64,000 bases of DNA from Xylona heveae TC161 (Eukaryota; Ascomycota; Xylonomycetes; Xylonales; Xylonaceae), in assembly GCF_001619985.1 (NCBI RefSeq), contig NW_017264200.1, positions 310,001 to 374,000 of the forward strand. The letters run 5' to 3'. A program made the position numbers and the translations under genes. Below, piece by piece: positions 29,665 to 47,643 of the stretch; the first letter of the stretch is position 1, and every line of letters starts with the position of its first letter. The notes beneath the pieces are model-generated. The model ran no database searches, was not told the DNA's origin, and worked only from the letters and a program-made list of their open reading frames with translations.

Positions 29665-30337
29665 TTTGACCAAATTGAGGCCAGATATTTGAATTGTTAG
29701 TATATAGAAGAGATGGTGATAGAGTATATATGGGTTTTTGAGCTGTTTTGTTGTTAGGAGATGATGTAACCTACCTAACGCACATGATTTGATCCAAATT
29801 GAGCTTATTGATAAGATGGAATTGATGAATATCAGATAAGATGATCGTATCATTATCCGCCACCTTTCGTTGCCTAATTAGTCATCTGGGGATTTTCTCA
29901 TCGTCTTGTCTGAGCACGCCATCCTGTCTAAACCCGTAAGGGCAACTTTACAACACCATTTTTTTGCTAGATTGATGGAAAAGATGCGGATGCTCCGTAG
30001 AGTCTCCGAGGGGCAATGGGGGCACTCATCCCATTGCTCTTTTGGTGTACCCTGGTCTTATTTCTGAATGTCATATCGTCGTTGATTCGCAGATCTAGTA
30101 TCTGTCCCTCCTTTTAGACTCTTTTTCTGTTTTGCCCGCAATTCGCCGCCCCATCCGTTGCGGCACTCAGTGGTCATATCTGTGCTTGTCTTTTCTTCTT
30201 TTTTTCTTGTCTTCTTACACCTCCTGCAGGAGTTCAAGAATCTTGACACTTCTCTTGTGTTGTGTCTTGTCTTTTCATTCCCTTGAATTCCCTTTGCAAT
30301 CTTTTTCTGCTGCAAAAGGATAATCCCTTGACTCGAG
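29665..30337. promoter_or_regulatory. Divergent promoter of fmp52 and met10
   Basis: 673 bp. The met10-proximal half (about 30150-30330) is a pyrimidine-rich leader with CTTTTCTTC-type runs, common upstream of well-expressed fungal genes. No clear sulfur-regulator (CYS3/MetR-type) palindrome was picked out by eye. Confidence 0.45.
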
Positions 30338-33300
30338 ATGCGTTTCCAAACGGCCGAGTCATCTGGGCCCGCTGGCCCGGAGGCCCTTCAGAATGGCTAC
30401 GATAAGCGTTCGCCTTCTCCAGAACCCTCTACCAGTCTTCCTTTTGGTCAGGGACTGGCATTGAGTGCCATTCGTGGCCCAACTTACTTGACTGCGCAGA
30501 CTCTCATCCAGCAAGTCGCCTACACTTTGTCGGATAAGCTGTTCACCTACTCCCCCGAGACTTTCGACCTCGATCTCGCTGTCAAGGACTGGTCCGCTCA
30601 GGACGAGTTGAATGCTCATGGATATACTACCAAAGTTTCTGCCATGGAAACCCGCCTTGGCGCTGGCGCCATTGCTTTGGGTTACATGTTCTCCAAGGAC
30701 TTTGATCTCAAGAAGCGTCACATTCCCCAGGGTATCCTTGCGTCTTCCTCAACCCTGACTTTCCTCCGCTCTGCGCTGGACCAATTGTCTCTTCTCTACT
30801 CTGTGGCAAACCCGTTTGTTGCCCACATTGCTGCGGTTGATTATGCTGCTGGTACTACGAACGGCCTCGTGACCGACTATGCCTTGGCCCTGGACCTCGC
30901 TGAAGATCTTGGCTTCGGTCTCGTCTCCAGCACTTCGGCTTACGAGTCGCAGCACATGGCTCTCTTCGCGACTTTGCTTGCAAGCATTCTGCCTACTATC
31001 CACGTTTACGATGGCATTCGCGTTGGCCGTGAGACCACTCGCATTGTTGACGCCCTAGACCAGTCTGCCCTCTCTAGCAGCTACAACACCGTTCGCGCTG
31101 AGGCCGACAAGGTTGACAAGAGTGAGGATGCTGGCCGCCGCACCACCGAGCTGCTCAAGGCTTTCAACGACGAGCTGGGCACTGCTTACAAGCTTTTCGA
31201 GTACCACGGCCACAGCGAGGCCGAGGCAGTTCTTGTGGTCTTTGGCAGCGTCGAGGCCTCTCTGGCTGCTCAGGTTGCCGCTGAGCTTGCCAAGCGTGGC
31301 GCAAAGATTGGCGTTGTCAACGTTCGCGTGTATCGACCTTTCGTCGAGGAGGCCTTCCTCGCCGAGCTCCCCGTCTCTGTGCGCAACATTGTTGTGCTCG
31401 GCCAGGTACAGGATGCTCTCTCCGTTGCCGAGTCCACGGTCCACTCTAAGCTCTACGACGATGTTCTCGCCTCCATTGTCTTCTCTGCTGGCAAATTTGC
31501 CAAGCAGCCTGAGGTTGTCGACCTGAAGTATGCTCGGGAGCAAGTCTTCACTCCCAGCGTGTTCTCGACTCTGTTCCAGCAGATTGCCTCTCAGGCTCCT
31601 CTTCAATTGAACACTGCTGCCGAGGAGCAAGCCGACGTAGACTTGCTCGACCAAACCTCTGTTCAGCAGTACTCCTTCTGGGATGTGGACGACTCCGTCT
31701 CGGCCACCGCTCCCGTCGCTCTCGGTCAGCTCTTGTCCAAGGACTCCTCCAGCAACGTCTTTGTCCGCACGGGCCACGACAACCTGGTTCAGGGTGGCTC
31801 TGTGCGCACCGATATTCGATCCTCCAAGAAGGCCATTGAGGCGCCTTATGCCATTGCCAATGGTGATGTTGCTGTCGTGCTCGACGCTAAGCTGTTCGAG
31901 TCCTTTGATATTATCAGCAGCATCAAGGTTGGCGGATCTGTCCTTGTTCGCCTTCCCGGCGTCAAGGACGAGGATGTTGAGAAGAAACTGCCCGTGGGCG
32001 TTCGCAAGGCCCTCGTTGAGAAGAAGATTGAATTCTTTGTCCTCGACCCACAGGCTTCTGAGACTGTCTCCAAGGATGAGACTGCCGAGTCCTACCTGAC
32101 TCAGCTCGCCTTCTTGTCTGTTGCCCGCAAGGACCTCGTTTCCAATGCTTCTGAGAAGCTCGCTGCCGTCAATGGCAACCCCGAGGCGCTCCAGAGCCTC
32201 GATAAGGAGCTCGAAAAGGCTCTTCGCGCGTTCGAGGTGCCCGAAGCCTGGGCTACTGTTGAGGCCGAGGTCGAGATTCCATCTCTCCCGACCGACGTCA
32301 ACGTCAACAGCTTCGCCGGGTTTGACAAGAGCGAGTCCGAACCCGTGACTCTCTCTCGTGACTGGAAGACTGTTGCCCAGGGTCTTGCCTTTAAGGAAGC
32401 CTTTGACACCAAGGCTGCTCTCCGTCCCGACCTGCCCGTCAAGACCTACACCATCAAGGTCAAGGAGAACAAGCGTCTCACGCCGACCAGCTACGACCGT
32501 AACATTTTCCACATTGAATTCGACCTTGGCGACTCTGGCCTCAAGTACGACATTGGCGAGGCCCTCGGTATCCACGCGCACAATGACACGGAAGAAGTCA
32601 ACGACTTCATCACCTTCTACGGCCTCAACCCCGAAGAAGTTGTCCAAGTGCCCTCGCGCGAAGACCCCGACGTTCTCGAGAGCCGCACCATCTTCCAGGG
32701 TCTGCAGCAGAACGTCGACCTGTGGGGCCGTCCCCCCAAGCGCTTCTACCAGGCCCTCTCCGAGTTCGCCACCGACGAAAAGGAGAAGCGCGAGCTGCTC
32801 GCACTCGGCGGCGCCGAAGGTGCCACTGAATTCAAGCGCCGCGCTGAAGTTGACACGGTCACTTATGCCGATATTCTGCTCGAGTTCCCCTCTGCGCACC
32901 CTTCGTTCGACGACATTGTGCGCATTGTCGACCCCATGAAGCGCCGCGAGTACTCCATCTCGTCGAGCCAGATTGTCAACCCCACGACCGTCTCGCTCCT
33001 CATCGTCGTCGTCTCCTGGGTCGACCCCCACGGCCGCGACCGCTGGGGCCAAGCCACGCGCTACCTCCACCGCCTCCGCCCCGGCGACAGCCTCACCGCC
33101 AGCGTCAAGCCCTCGGTTATGAAGCTCCCTCCCAAGTCGACCCAGCCTCTGATCATGGCCGGCTTGGGTACCGGTCTTGCCCCCTTCCGCGCCTTTGTCC
33201 AGTACCGCGCGTGGCAAAAGAGCCAGGGCCTCCCCATCGGCGCCGTCCTGCTGTACATGGGCTCGCGCACGCAGCGCGAAGAGTACCTCTACGGCGAGGA

Positions 33301-33616
33301 ATGGGAAGCCTACCGCGACTCCGGCATTGTGACCCTCCTCGGCCGTGCCTTTTCCCGTGACCAGCCCCAGAAGATCTACATCCAGGACCGCATGCGCGAG
33401 ACCCTGCCCGACATCATCCAGGCGTACATTCGCGAAGAAGGCGCCTTTTATCTCTGCGGTCCTACCTGGCCTGTTCCCGATGTCACGAGCGTGCTCGAAG
33501 AGGCTATCACCACTGAGACTCGTGCCCGCGCAAACGACCCGGCCAAGAAGGTCGATGCCAGACGCGAGATTGAGAACCTCAAGGAGGAAGAGCGCTACAT
33601 TCTTGAAGTGTACTAA
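30338..33616 (+). CDS. met10: Sulfite reductase [NADPH] flavoprotein (alpha) component
   Basis: Electron-input subunit of assimilatory sulfite reductase: NADPH to FAD and on to the haemoprotein subunit, for sulfite to sulfide reduction. Intronless, 1092 aa, near the usual fungal Met10 length. The N-terminal half is a pyruvate:ferredoxin-oxidoreductase-like region (GPTYLTAQTLIQQVAY; YHGHSEAEAVLVVFGS) rather than the flavodoxin domain of bacterial CysJ. The C-terminal half is the FNR-like module: KRREYSISSSQ (FAD, near 868), DRWGQATRYLHR, AGLGTGLAPFRAFVQYR (NADPH, near 942), YLCGPTWPVPDV, and the family-typical end ERYILEVY. Strongly biased, GC-ending codons suggest high expression and create long open frames on the opposite strand. 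Met22, also in sulfate assimilation, lies about 9.5 kb away. Confidence 0.96.
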   Translation: MRFQTAESSGPAGPEALQNGYDKRSPSPEPSTSLPFGQGLALSAIRGPTYLTAQTLIQQVAYTLSDKLFTYSPETFDLDLAVKDWSAQDELNAHGYTTKVSAMETRLGAGAIALGYMFSKDFDLKKRHIPQGILASSSTLTFLRSALDQLSLLYSVANPFVAHIAAVDYAAGTTNGLVTDYALALDLAEDLGFGLVSSTSAYESQHMALFATLLASILPTIHVYDGIRVGRETTRIVDALDQSALSSSYNTVRAEADKVDKSEDAGRRTTELLKAFNDELGTAYKLFEYHGHSEAEAVLVVFGSVEASLAAQVAAELAKRGAKIGVVNVRVYRPFVEEAFLAELPVSVRNIVVLGQVQDALSVAESTVHSKLYDDVLASIVFSAGKFAKQPEVVDLKYAREQVFTPSVFSTLFQQIASQAPLQLNTAAEEQADVDLLDQTSVQQYSFWDVDDSVSATAPVALGQLLSKDSSSNVFVRTGHDNLVQGGSVRTDIRSSKKAIEAPYAIANGDVAVVLDAKLFESFDIISSIKVGGSVLVRLPGVKDEDVEKKLPVGVRKALVEKKIEFFVLDPQASETVSKDETAESYLTQLAFLSVARKDLVSNASEKLAAVNGNPEALQSLDKELEKALRAFEVPEAWATVEAEVEIPSLPTDVNVNSFAGFDKSESEPVTLSRDWKTVAQGLAFKEAFDTKAALRPDLPVKTYTIKVKENKRLTPTSYDRNIFHIEFDLGDSGLKYDIGEALGIHAHNDTEEVNDFITFYGLNPEEVVQVPSREDPDVLESRTIFQGLQQNVDLWGRPPKRFYQALSEFATDEKEKRELLALGGAEGATEFKRRAEVDTVTYADILLEFPSAHPSFDDIVRIVDPMKRREYSISSSQIVNPTTVSLLIVVVSWVDPHGRDRWGQATRYLHRLRPGDSLTASVKPSVMKLPPKSTQPLIMAGLGTGLAPFRAFVQYRAWQKSQGLPIGAVLLYMGSRTQREEYLYGEEWEAYRDSGIVTLLGRAFSRDQPQKIYIQDRMRETLPDIIQAYIREEGAFYLCGPTWPVPDVTSVLEEAITTETRARANDPAKKVDARREIENLKEEERYILEVY

Positions 33617-35204
33617 CGTACTCGTTTCCCCCATATCTTTGTTATTTTTTAAACTCCATGTCATTTTCACGTTTGACCTTTTTATTTAAGATATCATTGT
33701 CTTCTTTCCATTATCCTATATTACAGTTATAGAATGGCGGCTCAAGCATCTTTTACATACTCGAAATATTTCTCCATCATTGGTTCATGTCCGAATGGAG
33801 AGTAAAAGTCAATGAAATTCATATATATACTCTTCCTTGACAGTCCATACACATCAAAGTAAATTTAAAAATGTCAATATATGTATATCACAAAACTCTT
33901 GCATTTATCTATCCTCCATAAATTAGTGTTATAAATGTGTATGTGCATGCCAGATATTCATGATATCTATGAAACACCTACGACATGTAAAAGACACCAG
34001 TAAGCCAAGCCCATGCCCGAAGCCCGAAGTACGAAGCCTAAGTCTGAAGTCATAAGCCAGTAGCCAGTACCCCAAAACCAGTAGCCCGAAGCTAGTGAGT
34101 AGTAAGTACCAAACACATGTGACAATGTAACACAAAGACTGAATGAATGAATGAATTATTAACAAACAATCAAACAAATGAAGAAAAGAGAGTAACATAA
34201 AGTAAAGGAAAGGAAAGGAAAGGAAAGTAACAAATTTGAATTATAGCATAGAGTAGGTGAACACAGCATTTGTGCACAGATGATTCACATATACACCCCC
34301 ACCCATGCATATTGTCATACATACTGCAGTACACACATACAAACATAATAGATATAATGGTAGGTAAGTAGGTAGATAGGTAAGTAGGCAAGTAAGGTAG
34401 GTACAAGTTACAACGTAAACAAGCAACACAAGCAACACAATTACATTTACACAGTAACAGTTAGACAAGTATACTTCACTTGCCATACATGGAAACATGA
34501 AAACATGCAAACATGAAAAATGAAATAATGGATACTTGGAAACATGGAATCGTGGAATAATAGACACAGAAACACTTAACATCAAAAGAGCAAACAGGCA
34601 AACAAGCAAGTAGGCAACGGGTACAAAAAAGGGAAAAGCAAAGCAAAGCAAAGCAAAATGGACGAACTGGCAAAGGGACGAGAAACAAAGACGAGAAAAA
34701 AGGACGGATAAAGAGTATATAAAAGCACAGCGAATAGAGAGTATATATACTAAATATGAACGAACATACAAGTACGAGCAAGGTAGGTATCTTCAATGAA
34801 TGAAACGAAACGAAACGAGACGAGACGAAAAATATCAAGACTCTGAATCTGACAGGAATTTGGACAAGCAAAGGGAAACCCCATAAAAAATATGAAAATG
34901 ATAAAAAAAAAAAAAAAAAGAATAGAAAAGAAAAGAAAAAGAAAAAGAAACTCCTGCAAATCAACAAGATGTGAGGCAACCAAAACTAAAAACTAAAATG
35001 GTTGGAACGGGTAAAAGTTCAGAAATATCAAACATTTAAATCGACCAAGGGATAGACACGGGATAGGAAATGACCAAATATCAAATACCAAATACCAGAT
35101 TGACAATGCAGGCATGCTGAAAACCAGACAAACAGAAATTAAAAAAAAGAATAAGGGGAAAAATAAACAAACGAATAAATGAATAAATTTCATAAAGAAA
35201 ATTA
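33617..35204. repeat. A-rich cryptically simple sequence between met10 and exgD
   Basis: 1.6 kb between convergent genes. From about 33990 to 35200 it is a patchwork of short, imperfect tandem repeats: AGCC/GAAG-type units at 34000-34100, (GAAT)n near 34141, (AAAGG)n near 34204-34228, a TAGG/TAAG patchwork at 34358-34402, ACAAGCAAC units near 34419-34440, AAACATG units near 34490-34520, (GCAAA)n near 34635, (ACGAA/ACGAG)n near 34803-34828 and A/G runs at 34900-34950. The + strand is depleted in T, so the minus strand shows long spurious frames. No gene is supported; part may be 3' UTR of exgD. Confidence 0.7.
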
Positions 35205-46541: not shown

Positions 46542-47643
46542 TCACACTTCCATCAGGCCTGCAGGCTCTTCGTCACCAGAATCATAACTGCCGACTGAGC
46601 TCATCTCGTCATCTGACTCGCTATCCTCACCAGCCTCATCGACGACGTCTTTACTGGCGTACTTGGCAACGTATTCTGCTCCGGCAACATATTAACAACT
46701 ACTATTCATCACGTGGTTTGAGAAAAGTATGCACCCACCTTTAACCTTTGCCTCGTAACTCTTCGGTTCTCGCATGAGTAGAGCTGCTGCCTCGCCATTC
46801 AGGGGGTCAGTGGGATTAGGGTAGCGTAGAAGCTGCGGAAGAAAGACTTCGAAAATGTTGATCATGTCGAACATGGGTGACCACGTCTGGTTGATAACGT
46901 CAAGACAGACTGAGCCAGATCTATTTTCTCGTCAGAACATATTCGAAAATTTACCCTCGAATCCTGACACACAGCTCATCAATGTTCGGGTGGAATATCC
47001 TGTTTACGAATCCGATGCTTGGGCTCTTGTAAGGGTATTGATCCGGTAACTCGACGTGTATCTTCCACAGCCCGCCAGAGAACGGCGCTATGATGCAAAG
47101 TTAGTACATGCAAACAACTTGCTACAAGGCTCGAATAAGCGCATACTCTCTTCTGGTCCCTTGAATCTAACGTAGAATTCCTGCCTAAATATTCCTCAGT
47201 ATAAAGAATCACGCGACAACAGAAACAGTATAGATTTCCGTTGAAGAATTCGACATACACTAAAGCCAAAAGAGTCAGTAGGAATCATGACAGCAGTTCT
47301 AGCAGCAATATAAAATATTGGGGAGCGTTTTTGTTGGAGACGTACTATTGTCATTGACCAATGTGACCTCATAATCACTCATGAGCCTGGCCATTATCGC
47401 TCAAATTAGCATTGACAGAACCCGACGACAGAAACTGTTCAAGATTCGGAGAGGCATACATCCTGGTAGCATGTCAGCAGAAAGTACTTGTATTTGAATA
47501 CAGTTGGTTACACTTACTTCATGACCTGTAGAGGAAAAAAGTGTAATTACCGCGGTCAGTAACGAGCTCTGATCGCCACACAGTCCGATTACAATCCTGG
47601 AGTTACTCACATCGGTTTCGATTCTCCGCTTCGGACTACTCAT
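46542..47643 (-). CDS. ubc8: E2 ubiquitin-conjugating enzyme Ubc8 (UBE2H type), with micro-exons
   Basis: E2 of the GID/CTLH pathway that in yeast marks gluconeogenic enzymes such as fructose-1,6-bisphosphatase for degradation. Proposed nine exons: 47611-47643, 47518-47525 (8 nt), 47460-47462 (3 nt), 47346-47386, 47259 (1 nt), 47147-47184, 46973-47087, 46739-46920, 46542-46675; 555 nt, 184 aa. The joined protein follows the Ubc8/UBE2H family with no visible gap in the catalytic fold: start [22 protein letters not shown] with the HPN motif, and catalytic Cys85 in [33 protein letters not shown] and an acidic Ser-rich tail follow. Donors, branch points and acceptors are good for most introns. 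Alternative: a donor GTCTCC four bases downstream of exon 4 avoids the 1-nt exon and replaces Met29 with Ser-Thr. Confidence 0.92.
47259..47259 (-). other. ubc8: Candidate single-nucleotide exon of ubc8
   Basis: Between two introns that each look complete: 47260-47345 (GTACGT donor, TACTGAC branch, CTTTAG acceptor) and 47185-47258 (GTATGT donor, ACTGAG branch, ATTTAG acceptor). The lone T completes an ATG codon (A+T+G) giving NDN-M-QEFYV. Confidence 0.6.
47460..47462 (-). other. ubc8: Candidate 3-nt exon of ubc8
   Basis: GAT flanked by intron 47463-47517 (GTAAGT donor, GCTGAC branch, ACCAG acceptor) and intron 47387-47459 (GTATGC donor, GCTAAT branch, GCCAG acceptor). It restores VMKML, matching the family's length at this helix; skipping it leaves the frame intact but one residue short. 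Confidence 0.68.

What the first reader, a model, noticed from the sequence alone, without database searches (positions are those of the whole stretch)
47259..47259. Candidate single-nucleotide exon in ubc8
To keep the Ubc8 fold in frame between VTLVNDN and [10 protein letters not shown], the most economical model uses two consecutive, complete-looking introns separated by one T. The upstream intron (47260-47345) has GTACGT, TACTGAC and CTTTAG. The downstream one (47185-47258) has GTATGT, ACTGAG and ATTTAG. The joined codon A-T-G gives Met before QEF, matching from memory the yeast protein (NDSMQEF) in residue and length. One-nucleotide exons are almost unknown; one was reported in Arabidopsis APC11. 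The competing model uses the poor donor GTCTCC and reads NDN-Ser-Thr-QEF, one residue longer.
Basis: partly seen in the sequence, partly recalled or inferred. Interest (0 to 1): 0.8.

Follow-up and report, generated by a model that had tools for sequence, protein, structure and literature searches.

The report
One-nucleotide exon in fungal ubc8 gene
In a filamentous fungus, the gene for a ubiquitin-conjugating enzyme appears to carry an exon one DNA letter long, and faulty database annotations of the same gene suggest that many related fungi share it.

Summary
The minus-strand gene at 47643-46542 encodes a Ubc8/UBE2H-type E2. Exon 4 ends AAT A, exon 6 starts G CAG, and the only well-supported splice chain between them removes 47345-47260 and 47258-47185, leaving one T at 47259 (A-T-G = Met29). 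It scores 12.3; the best of 15 other in-frame chains scores 3.1. A second microexon, not in the finding, lies upstream: GAT, 47462-47460. With both, the protein aligns with yeast Ubc8 without a gap over residues 1-154.

Relatives give the strongest support. Of 65 non-NCBI homologues that cover the joint, mostly short transcript-like contigs, 65 have exactly one residue there, Met. NCBI models assigned to Pezizomycotina are garbled at this joint in 103 of 120 listed cases; 28 of them, in 14 genera, read NDN-M-(Y/F/S)-, as expected if A|T|GTATG is read through. Outside Pezizomycotina 22 of 22 models have one residue. The exon is therefore probably ancient in this subphylum.

One-nucleotide exons are known (plant APC11 and VPS55; Fusarium CYP621A, 2026), so this is a new member of a known kind. 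No RNA from this species, and no relative's genomic DNA, was available.

The parts
47259..47259 (-). exon 5, one nucleotide (T), middle base of the Met29 codon A|T|G
   Evidence: relatives
47260..47345 (-). intron 4, 86 nt, GTACGT ... TACTGAC ... CTTTAG
47185..47258 (-). intron 5, 74 nt, GTATGT ... ACTGAG ... ATTTAG
47346..47386 (-). exon 4, 41 nt, ends GTC AAT GAC AAT A
47147..47184 (-). exon 6, 38 nt, starts G CAG GAA TTC
47460..47462 (-). exon 3, three nucleotides (GAT), AA|GAT|G gives Lys14-Met15; not in the finding
   Evidence: protein length against yeast Ubc8; 16 VMK-MY read-through models; does not pass the strict signal test because its donor is GTATGC
47463..47517 (-). intron 2, 55 nt, GTAAGT ... 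GCTGAC ... CCAG
47387..47459 (-). intron 3, 73 nt, GTATGC ... GCTAAT ... CCAG
47518..47525 (-). exon 2, eight nucleotides (GTCATGAA)
47526..47610 (-). intron 1, 85 nt
47611..47643 (-). exon 1, 33 nt, start codon at 47643
47088..47146 (-). intron 6, 59 nt
46973..47087 (-). exon 7, 115 nt
   Evidence: PF00179 match
46921..46972 (-). intron 7, 52 nt
46739..46920 (-). exon 8, 182 nt, holds the SGSVCLDV motif
   Evidence: PF00179 match
46676..46738 (-). intron 8, 63 nt
46542..46675 (-). exon 9, 134 nt, acidic tail and stop codon

Best explanation
Position 47259 is a one-nucleotide coding exon of the ubc8 orthologue (a Ubc8/UBE2H-type E2) of a Pezizomycotina fungus. Two complete GT-AG introns flank it. 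Each is probably recognised by intron definition and removed one after the other: removing intron 4 leaves AAUAU next to the intact GUAUGU donor, or removing intron 5 first leaves CUUUAG|UG as the acceptor. The two inner sites overlap too closely to be used at once, so splicing should be sequential, in either order. The mRNA then reads AAT-ATG-CAG. The same exon, and a 3-nt exon (GAT) upstream, are probably inherited from the base of Pezizomycotina. Shown here: sequence, frame, signals and protein length. Indirectly shown: the residue in likely transcripts of relatives, and read-through patterns in relatives' gene models. Inferred: splicing in this species, the order of removal, constitutive use, and the age.
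For: (1) Coordinates and signals exact. (2) Best of 16 in-frame chains by a wide margin; full pattern once in the window, rates 6.5e-5 and 2.3e-4 in controls. (3) With both microexons the protein aligns without a gap to yeast Ubc8 (PDB 8pmq) over residues 1-154, E = 3.4e-69. (4) Of 74 non-NCBI homologues, 65 cover the joint and 65 of 65 have one residue there, Met (9 lack that part); Met has only the codon ATG. (5) Of 154 NCBI models that I assign to Pezizomycotina, 120 keep the NDN anchor: 17 correct, 103 garbled at this joint. Of the 29 garbled models with M after NDN, 28 go on Y, F or S and then V (20), A (4), G (3) or M (1), as read-through of A|T|GTnnG predicts (M does not fit a G at donor position 5; S fits only as TCN, 2 cases), in 14 genera; 46 start with S, as read-through of A|GT predicts. 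(6) Seventeen models end V-QEF, the residue before V being L, A, T or I, compatible with YAG|T|G in 16 and ATAG|T|G in one. (7) Outside Pezizomycotina 22 of 22 models have one residue there, 21 Met and 1 Leu.
Against: No RNA from this species and no relative's genomic DNA could be read, so conservation of the exon rests on protein models. The branch-like site of intron 5 is ACTGAG rather than CTRAY. The donor matrix rests on 14 donors that I chose partly by eye; one unclear E2 joint that I left out had a candidate donor GTCCGT, with C at +3. The 3-nt exon fails the strict test (donor GTATGC), and a bare AG-NNN-GT arises in 8.8% of simulated introns. The second homologue search used a garbled query and so favours garbled models; in the first search, which used the intact protein, 11 of 62 Pezizomycotina models are correct. 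Seventeen garbled models fit neither class (for example NDN-R-QEF in five), one M-class model ends in V (P0122), and 7 S-class models end in R.
Confidence: 0.94

Rival explanations
1. One long intron 47341-47185 with the poor donor GTCTCC; protein reads NDN-Ser-Thr-QEF, one residue longer.
For: In frame without stops. Twenty NCBI models of other fungi look like the same kind of shifted donor, NDN-S-x-QEF.
Against: Donor score -6.4 against 3.0 (GTACGT) and 4.5 (GTATGT). None of the 14 training donors has C at +3 or C at +5. 0 of 65 non-NCBI sequences show an extra residue. The shift is open to any GTNNGT donor, so it is what a predictor that cannot place a 1-nt exon may choose.
Confidence: 0.03
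2. Another single intron: 47345-47195 (GTACGT...ACTGAG; protein NDN-Arg-Ile-Phe-Arg-QEF), or 47358-47181 (GTCAAT...GGCAG; protein loses VNDN-x-Q).
For: Both are in frame; they are the two best single-intron chains, at -0.52 and -0.05. A Morchella model (P0246) reads TL-EFYV like the second.
Against: The first has a GAG acceptor without a branch-like site in my scan and adds three residues; the second has a weak donor (-2.35) and removes six. 65 of 65 non-NCBI relatives have neither change.
Confidence: 0.01
3. A base is missing from or added to the assembly near the joint, so that one intron of about 160 nt with ordinary ends would be in frame.
For: Only one base is at stake, and no second assembly of this genome was available.
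Against: The two inner splice sites with branch-like signals would then be coincidence. The same phase gap shows in gene models from many separately sequenced genera. At 161 nt the joined intron would be far longer than the other six introns of the gene (52-85 nt).
Confidence: 0.01
4. The 1-nt exon is real but often skipped or its introns retained, giving regulated non-productive mRNA (a control on Ubc8 level) rather than constitutive splicing. This does not exclude the best explanation of the exon itself.
For: Skipping gives a frameshift with stops. Nothing in the sequence excludes it.
Against: 65 of 65 non-NCBI sequences that cover the joint are spliced correctly, but broken isoforms would not appear as long ORFs, so this is weak.
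Confidence: 0.1

Closest known systems
CYP621A one-nucleotide exon, Fusarium (PMC12940212, Int J Mol Sci 2026; main text parts 1-2 of 3 read)
   Same: 1-nt exon in a nuclear gene of Pezizomycotina, middle base of a codon, flanked by two ordinary introns, missed by nearly all gene models, found through a phase gap.
   Different: Base G in AGGGT in a P450 gene of one genus, with RNA reads. Here base T in AGTGT in an E2 gene, apparently across many classes, without RNA reads of this species.
APC11 single-nucleotide exon, Arabidopsis (PMC4674806; main text part 1 of 3 read)
   Same: Constitutive 1-nt exon in a small gene of the ubiquitin system; loss of the base breaks the frame.
   Different: Plant; base A; proven with minigene mutants. 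No homology between the two exons is claimed.
APC11 and VPS55 1-nt microexons conserved in land plants (PMC8831610; passages read)
   Same: Deep conservation and pervasive misannotation of the exon.
   Different: Plants, with RNA-seq and RT-PCR.
Stwintrons (spliceosomal twin introns) of fungi (PMC12403724 and others; search listing; PMC5639578 and PMC6616335 searched by term only)
   Same: Two adjacent introns removed by consecutive splicing.
   Different: In a stwintron one intron interrupts a splice signal of the other. Here both introns have their own complete donor and acceptor, and the T between them is coding.
Single-nucleotide exon between two group II introns in mitochondrial rnl, Ophiostoma (PMC12308204; passages read)
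   Same: One nucleotide between two introns.
   Different: Mitochondrial group II introns in an rRNA gene, not spliceosomal.

Membership tests
Ubc8/UBE2H-type E2 ubiquitin-conjugating enzymes | Best sequence match to yeast Ubc8 and human UBE2H over the whole E2 fold | tested here: met
   8pmq (residues 1-171, E 3.4e-69), 8pjn (1.2e-65), 2z5d (2e-65); then two further entries, 2onu (9e-62) and 1yf9 (2.8e-54), then a drop to 3.8e-27
Ubc8/UBE2H-type E2 ubiquitin-conjugating enzymes | Catalytic cysteine in SGSVCLDV and acidic C-terminal tail | tested here: met
   translation; alignment with 2z5d (8pmq and 8pjn carry K at the Cys position)
One-nucleotide exon of a nuclear gene | Exactly one exonic base between a complete acceptor and a complete donor | tested here: met
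One-nucleotide exon of a nuclear gene | Base needed to keep the reading frame of a conserved protein | tested here: met
One-nucleotide exon of a nuclear gene | Base present in the mature mRNA | not testable with these tools
   no RNA from this species; relatives' likely transcripts carry Met (65 of 65)
Stwintron (spliceosomal twin intron) | Internal intron interrupts the donor, branch site or acceptor of an external intron | tested here: not met
   sequence: both introns have their own donor and acceptor, and the letters before intron 4 (AATA) do not form the start of a split GTRNGY donor; judged by eye

The most novel reading that the evidence does not exclude
The 1-nt exon, with the 3-nt and 8-nt exons before it, has been kept since the base of Pezizomycotina because its forced two-step splicing acts as a control on Ubc8 output: delay or failure at either step gives a frameshifted message that is destroyed, so the exon works as a built-in splicing checkpoint on the E2 that, in yeast, serves glucose-induced protein degradation (role recalled, not from a call).
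Probability: 0.1. Interest if true: 0.85.

Novelty: new member of a known kind. Interest (0 to 1): 0.7.

Why it matters
A 2026 paper reports the first one-nucleotide exon of a fungal gene, in Fusarium P450s (PMC12940212). Here the same extreme appears in a conserved E2 gene, and the listed gene models of many Pezizomycotina genera fail at exactly this joint, which suggests a far older and wider case. It gives a natural test of how small an exon the fungal spliceosome can use and in what order it removes introns with overlapping sites, in genera that include tractable laboratory fungi. It also means that most of the listed NCBI Ubc8 models from these fungi are wrong near the N-terminus (103 of 120 that keep the anchor; one of the three queries favoured such models).

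Tried and rejected
Rival splice chains: all 4 one-intron and 12 two-intron in-frame chains found were scored; only the 1-nt chain has good signals at all four sites. Stwintron: rejected, see the membership test. An unsupervised intron finder on the window and E2 loci failed (17 candidates, 1 over the threshold; codon bias too weak), so the donor matrix uses 14 donors from ubc8 (6, the two tested introns left out) and other E2 genes of this genome (8), chosen by frame and partly by eye. In one search several E2 joints stayed unclear (L009, L018, L025); a candidate of L018 was GTCCGT and was left out. L004 was set up wrongly there. The Markov control was trained on eight introns of this gene, the two tested ones included. 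The strict pattern is not met by the 3-nt exon. Some later exon ends were set a base off and were corrected.

Relatives' DNA: genome contigs gave no relative; viral contigs gave one distant match (L032, 17 residues), not followed. No fungal relative's DNA was obtained. Rfam found nothing in the window at gathering scores. In one search the label 'one residue M' matched nothing because of a faulty pattern, so its class counts were replaced; the cross table was used only for R and V ends. The split into Pezizomycotina and others follows the organism names in the listings, mostly by recalled taxonomy; six names were looked up. Among the 22 'others' three are labelled as plants (P0001, P0027, P0159), one is listed from UniRef only (P0159), and one has its organism cut off in the listing (P0168).

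Literature: ten searches found no report of a 1-nt exon in ubc8; most subscription papers and all bioRxiv preprints are missing from that library.

Full report
The window lies in a 24.28 Mb, 17-contig genome without a name. The gene in question runs on the minus strand from 47643 to 46542 and encodes a 184-residue E2. By sequence its nearest solved relatives are yeast Ubc8 (8pmq) and human UBE2H (8pjn, 2z5d). By its C-terminal tail the nearest listed proteins are from Geoglossum and Lasallia, both Pezizomycotina (Geoglossum checked). So the host is very likely a filamentous ascomycete; its species was not determined. PF00179 matches only two exons at this locus (exons 7 and 8); the small 5' exons were not found by that search.

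On the minus strand exon 4 ends GTC AAT GAC AAT A (47346). Then come GTACGT...TACTGACTCTTTTGGCTTTAG (47345-47260), a single T (47259), GTATGT...ATACTGAGGAATATTTAG (47258-47185), and G CAG GAA TTC TAC (47184 onward). Joining exon 4 to exon 6 without the T shifts the frame and meets stops. AG-N-GT occurs once in these 161 nt. Of the 16 chains with one or two introns that keep the frame without a stop, the 1-nt chain scores 12.3 summed over its two introns; the other two-intron chains score at most 3.1 and the best single-intron chain -0.05. The score uses a donor matrix from 14 donors of this genome plus simple acceptor and branch terms, so it is a ranking, not a probability.

Chance. AG-N-GT at usable distances is not rare: 15% of 200,000 simulated introns and 20% of 25,540 window slices have one. 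With GTRNGT, YAG and branch-like signals on both sides the rates are 6.5e-5 and 2.3e-4, and a regular expression for the double-intron pattern matches once in the window on both strands, here.

A second microexon. The intron upstream of exon 4, if read as one, would be 131 nt (47517-47387) and would give VMK-LMSD, one residue shorter than yeast Ubc8. It contains CCAG|GAT|GTATGC at 47462-47460, which splits it into introns of 55 and 73 nt and gives VMK-M-LMSD. Its signals are weaker: it does not pass the strict pattern (donor GTATGC, not GTRNGT), and a bare AG-NNN-GT arises in 8.8% of simulated introns of 131 nt. Protein length and relatives carry this one. With both microexons the protein aligns to yeast Ubc8 without a gap over residues 1-154. 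The exon lengths are then 33, 8, 3, 41, 1, 38, 115, 182 and 134 nt.

Relatives. Three searches (the best 120 rows listed in each, of 5,765, 1,005 and 804 matches) gave 250 distinct proteins, sorted. The 74 non-NCBI entries (sources lgn, jgi, ena, merc) lie mostly on short contigs: of the 65 that cover the joint, 57 are on contigs of at most 2,523 bases, 4 on contigs of 3.3-7.3 kb, and 4 have no contig length listed. An unbroken frame on such a contig, for a gene with this many introns, points to spliced RNA; that is my inference. All 65 have exactly one residue at the joint, and it is Met; the other 9 lack that part. Since Met has one codon, these sequences read ATG at the joint.

NCBI models tell the reverse. 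Of 154 entries that I assign to Pezizomycotina, 34 lack the NDN anchor. Of the other 120, 17 have the single Met, 28 read NDN-M-(Y/F/S)-(V/A/G/M)..., 46 read NDN-S..., 12 skip ahead and 17 are garbled otherwise. The M-Y-V class is what A|T|GTATGT gives when intron 4 is removed and the donor of intron 5 is missed; it occurs in Aspergillus, Penicillium, Paecilomyces, Emmonsiellopsis, Coniosporium, Hortaea, Salinomyces, Friedmanniomyces, Septoria, Aureobasidium, Lasallia, Sclerophora, Fusarium and Lachnellula (14 genera; names). One further M-start model (P0075, M-H-P) does not fit. The S class is what A|GT gives when the donor of intron 4 is missed. Full retention gives mirror-image ends. If intron 5 is kept to its end, the last codon before CAG is AGG (Arg): 7 of the 18 M-class models tabulated end R-QEF. 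If intron 4 is kept and intron 5 removed, the last codon is G-T-G (Val): 5 of 41 S-class models end V-QEF. Read as whole retained introns, these imply lengths of 57-75 nt and 54-72 nt (my arithmetic). One M-class model ends in V (P0122), against the pattern, and 7 S-class models end in R, which needs a further predicted intron inside. Of all 17 V-QEF models the residue before V is L (9), A (4), T (3) or I (1), compatible with YAG|T|G, or ATAG|T|G in one. Together these two kinds of error point to an exon of exactly one T in those genomes.

Twenty of the 46 S-class models read NDN-S-x-QEF with x = K, E, T, M, G or Q, residues whose codons can be NNG: the predictor seems to have used the second GT of GTNNGT, adding 4 nt instead of 1. 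In this window that second GT is the GTCTCC donor.

Age. Pezizomycetes (Tuber, Terfezia, Kalaharituber, Morchella) are garbled at the joint too (Tuber checked), while 22 of 22 models from outside Pezizomycotina (among them Lipomyces, Saitoella, Taphrina, Pneumocystis, Microbotryum and Rhizophagus) have one residue there, 21 Met and 1 Leu (two lineages checked). This suggests an origin on the stem of Pezizomycotina. It is an inference from protein models; no relative's DNA was read, and a clean model does not prove that introns are absent there. The second search used a garbled query (P0031), which favours garbled rows; in the first search alone 11 of 62 Pezizomycotina models are correct. The third search used only residues 120-184 and so does not select on the joint.

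Mechanism. The acceptor of intron 4 and the donor of intron 5 lie one base apart. From general knowledge of splicing, two spliceosomes cannot sit on both at once, and fungi recognise introns rather than exons, so sequential removal is the likely route. Either order restores a usable site. The order and any regulation are not shown.

Literature. One-nucleotide exons are published for Arabidopsis APC11 (PMC4674806, part 1 of 3 read), plant APC11 and VPS55 (PMC8831610, passages) and Fusarium CYP621A (PMC12940212, parts 1-2 of 3 read), the last described by its authors as the first for a fungal gene. A 20-nt switch-like microexon is known in Trichoderma Xlr2 (PMC11121469, passages). My ten searches found none for ubc8. 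The finding is thus a new member of a known kind, notable for its gene and its apparent age.

Noticed in passing
window 47460-47462 (-): A 3-nt exon (GAT) in the same gene, 201 nt upstream of the 1-nt exon; 16 database models show VMK-MY read-through at this place.
   Followed up: yes
window 47518-47525 (-): An 8-nt exon precedes it, so the first 44 coding bases of ubc8 are split over exons of 33, 8 and 3 nt.
   Followed up: partly
L031, about 1500-1860 (own genome G000:C2 near 2660629-2661153): The UBC9-like E2 gene seems to have a 24-nt microexon (EYPTKPPK) that restores the usual UBC9 reading (usual reading recalled).
   Followed up: partly
L009, L025, L026 (own genome, other E2 genes): Long best in-frame gaps (123-439 nt) between E2 exons at or just after HPN may also hide small exons.
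   Followed up: no
database entries P0177, P0178, P0205 and others: Ubc8 models of well-used genomes, such as A. nidulans AN1761.2 and A. fumigatus, are garbled near the N-terminus.
   Followed up: partly
window 31058-33685 (-) against 30332-33613 (+): An 876-aa open frame with no Pfam match at 1e-5 lies antisense to a 1094-aa frame with FAD-binding and POR-like domains; probably a shadow frame.
   Followed up: no
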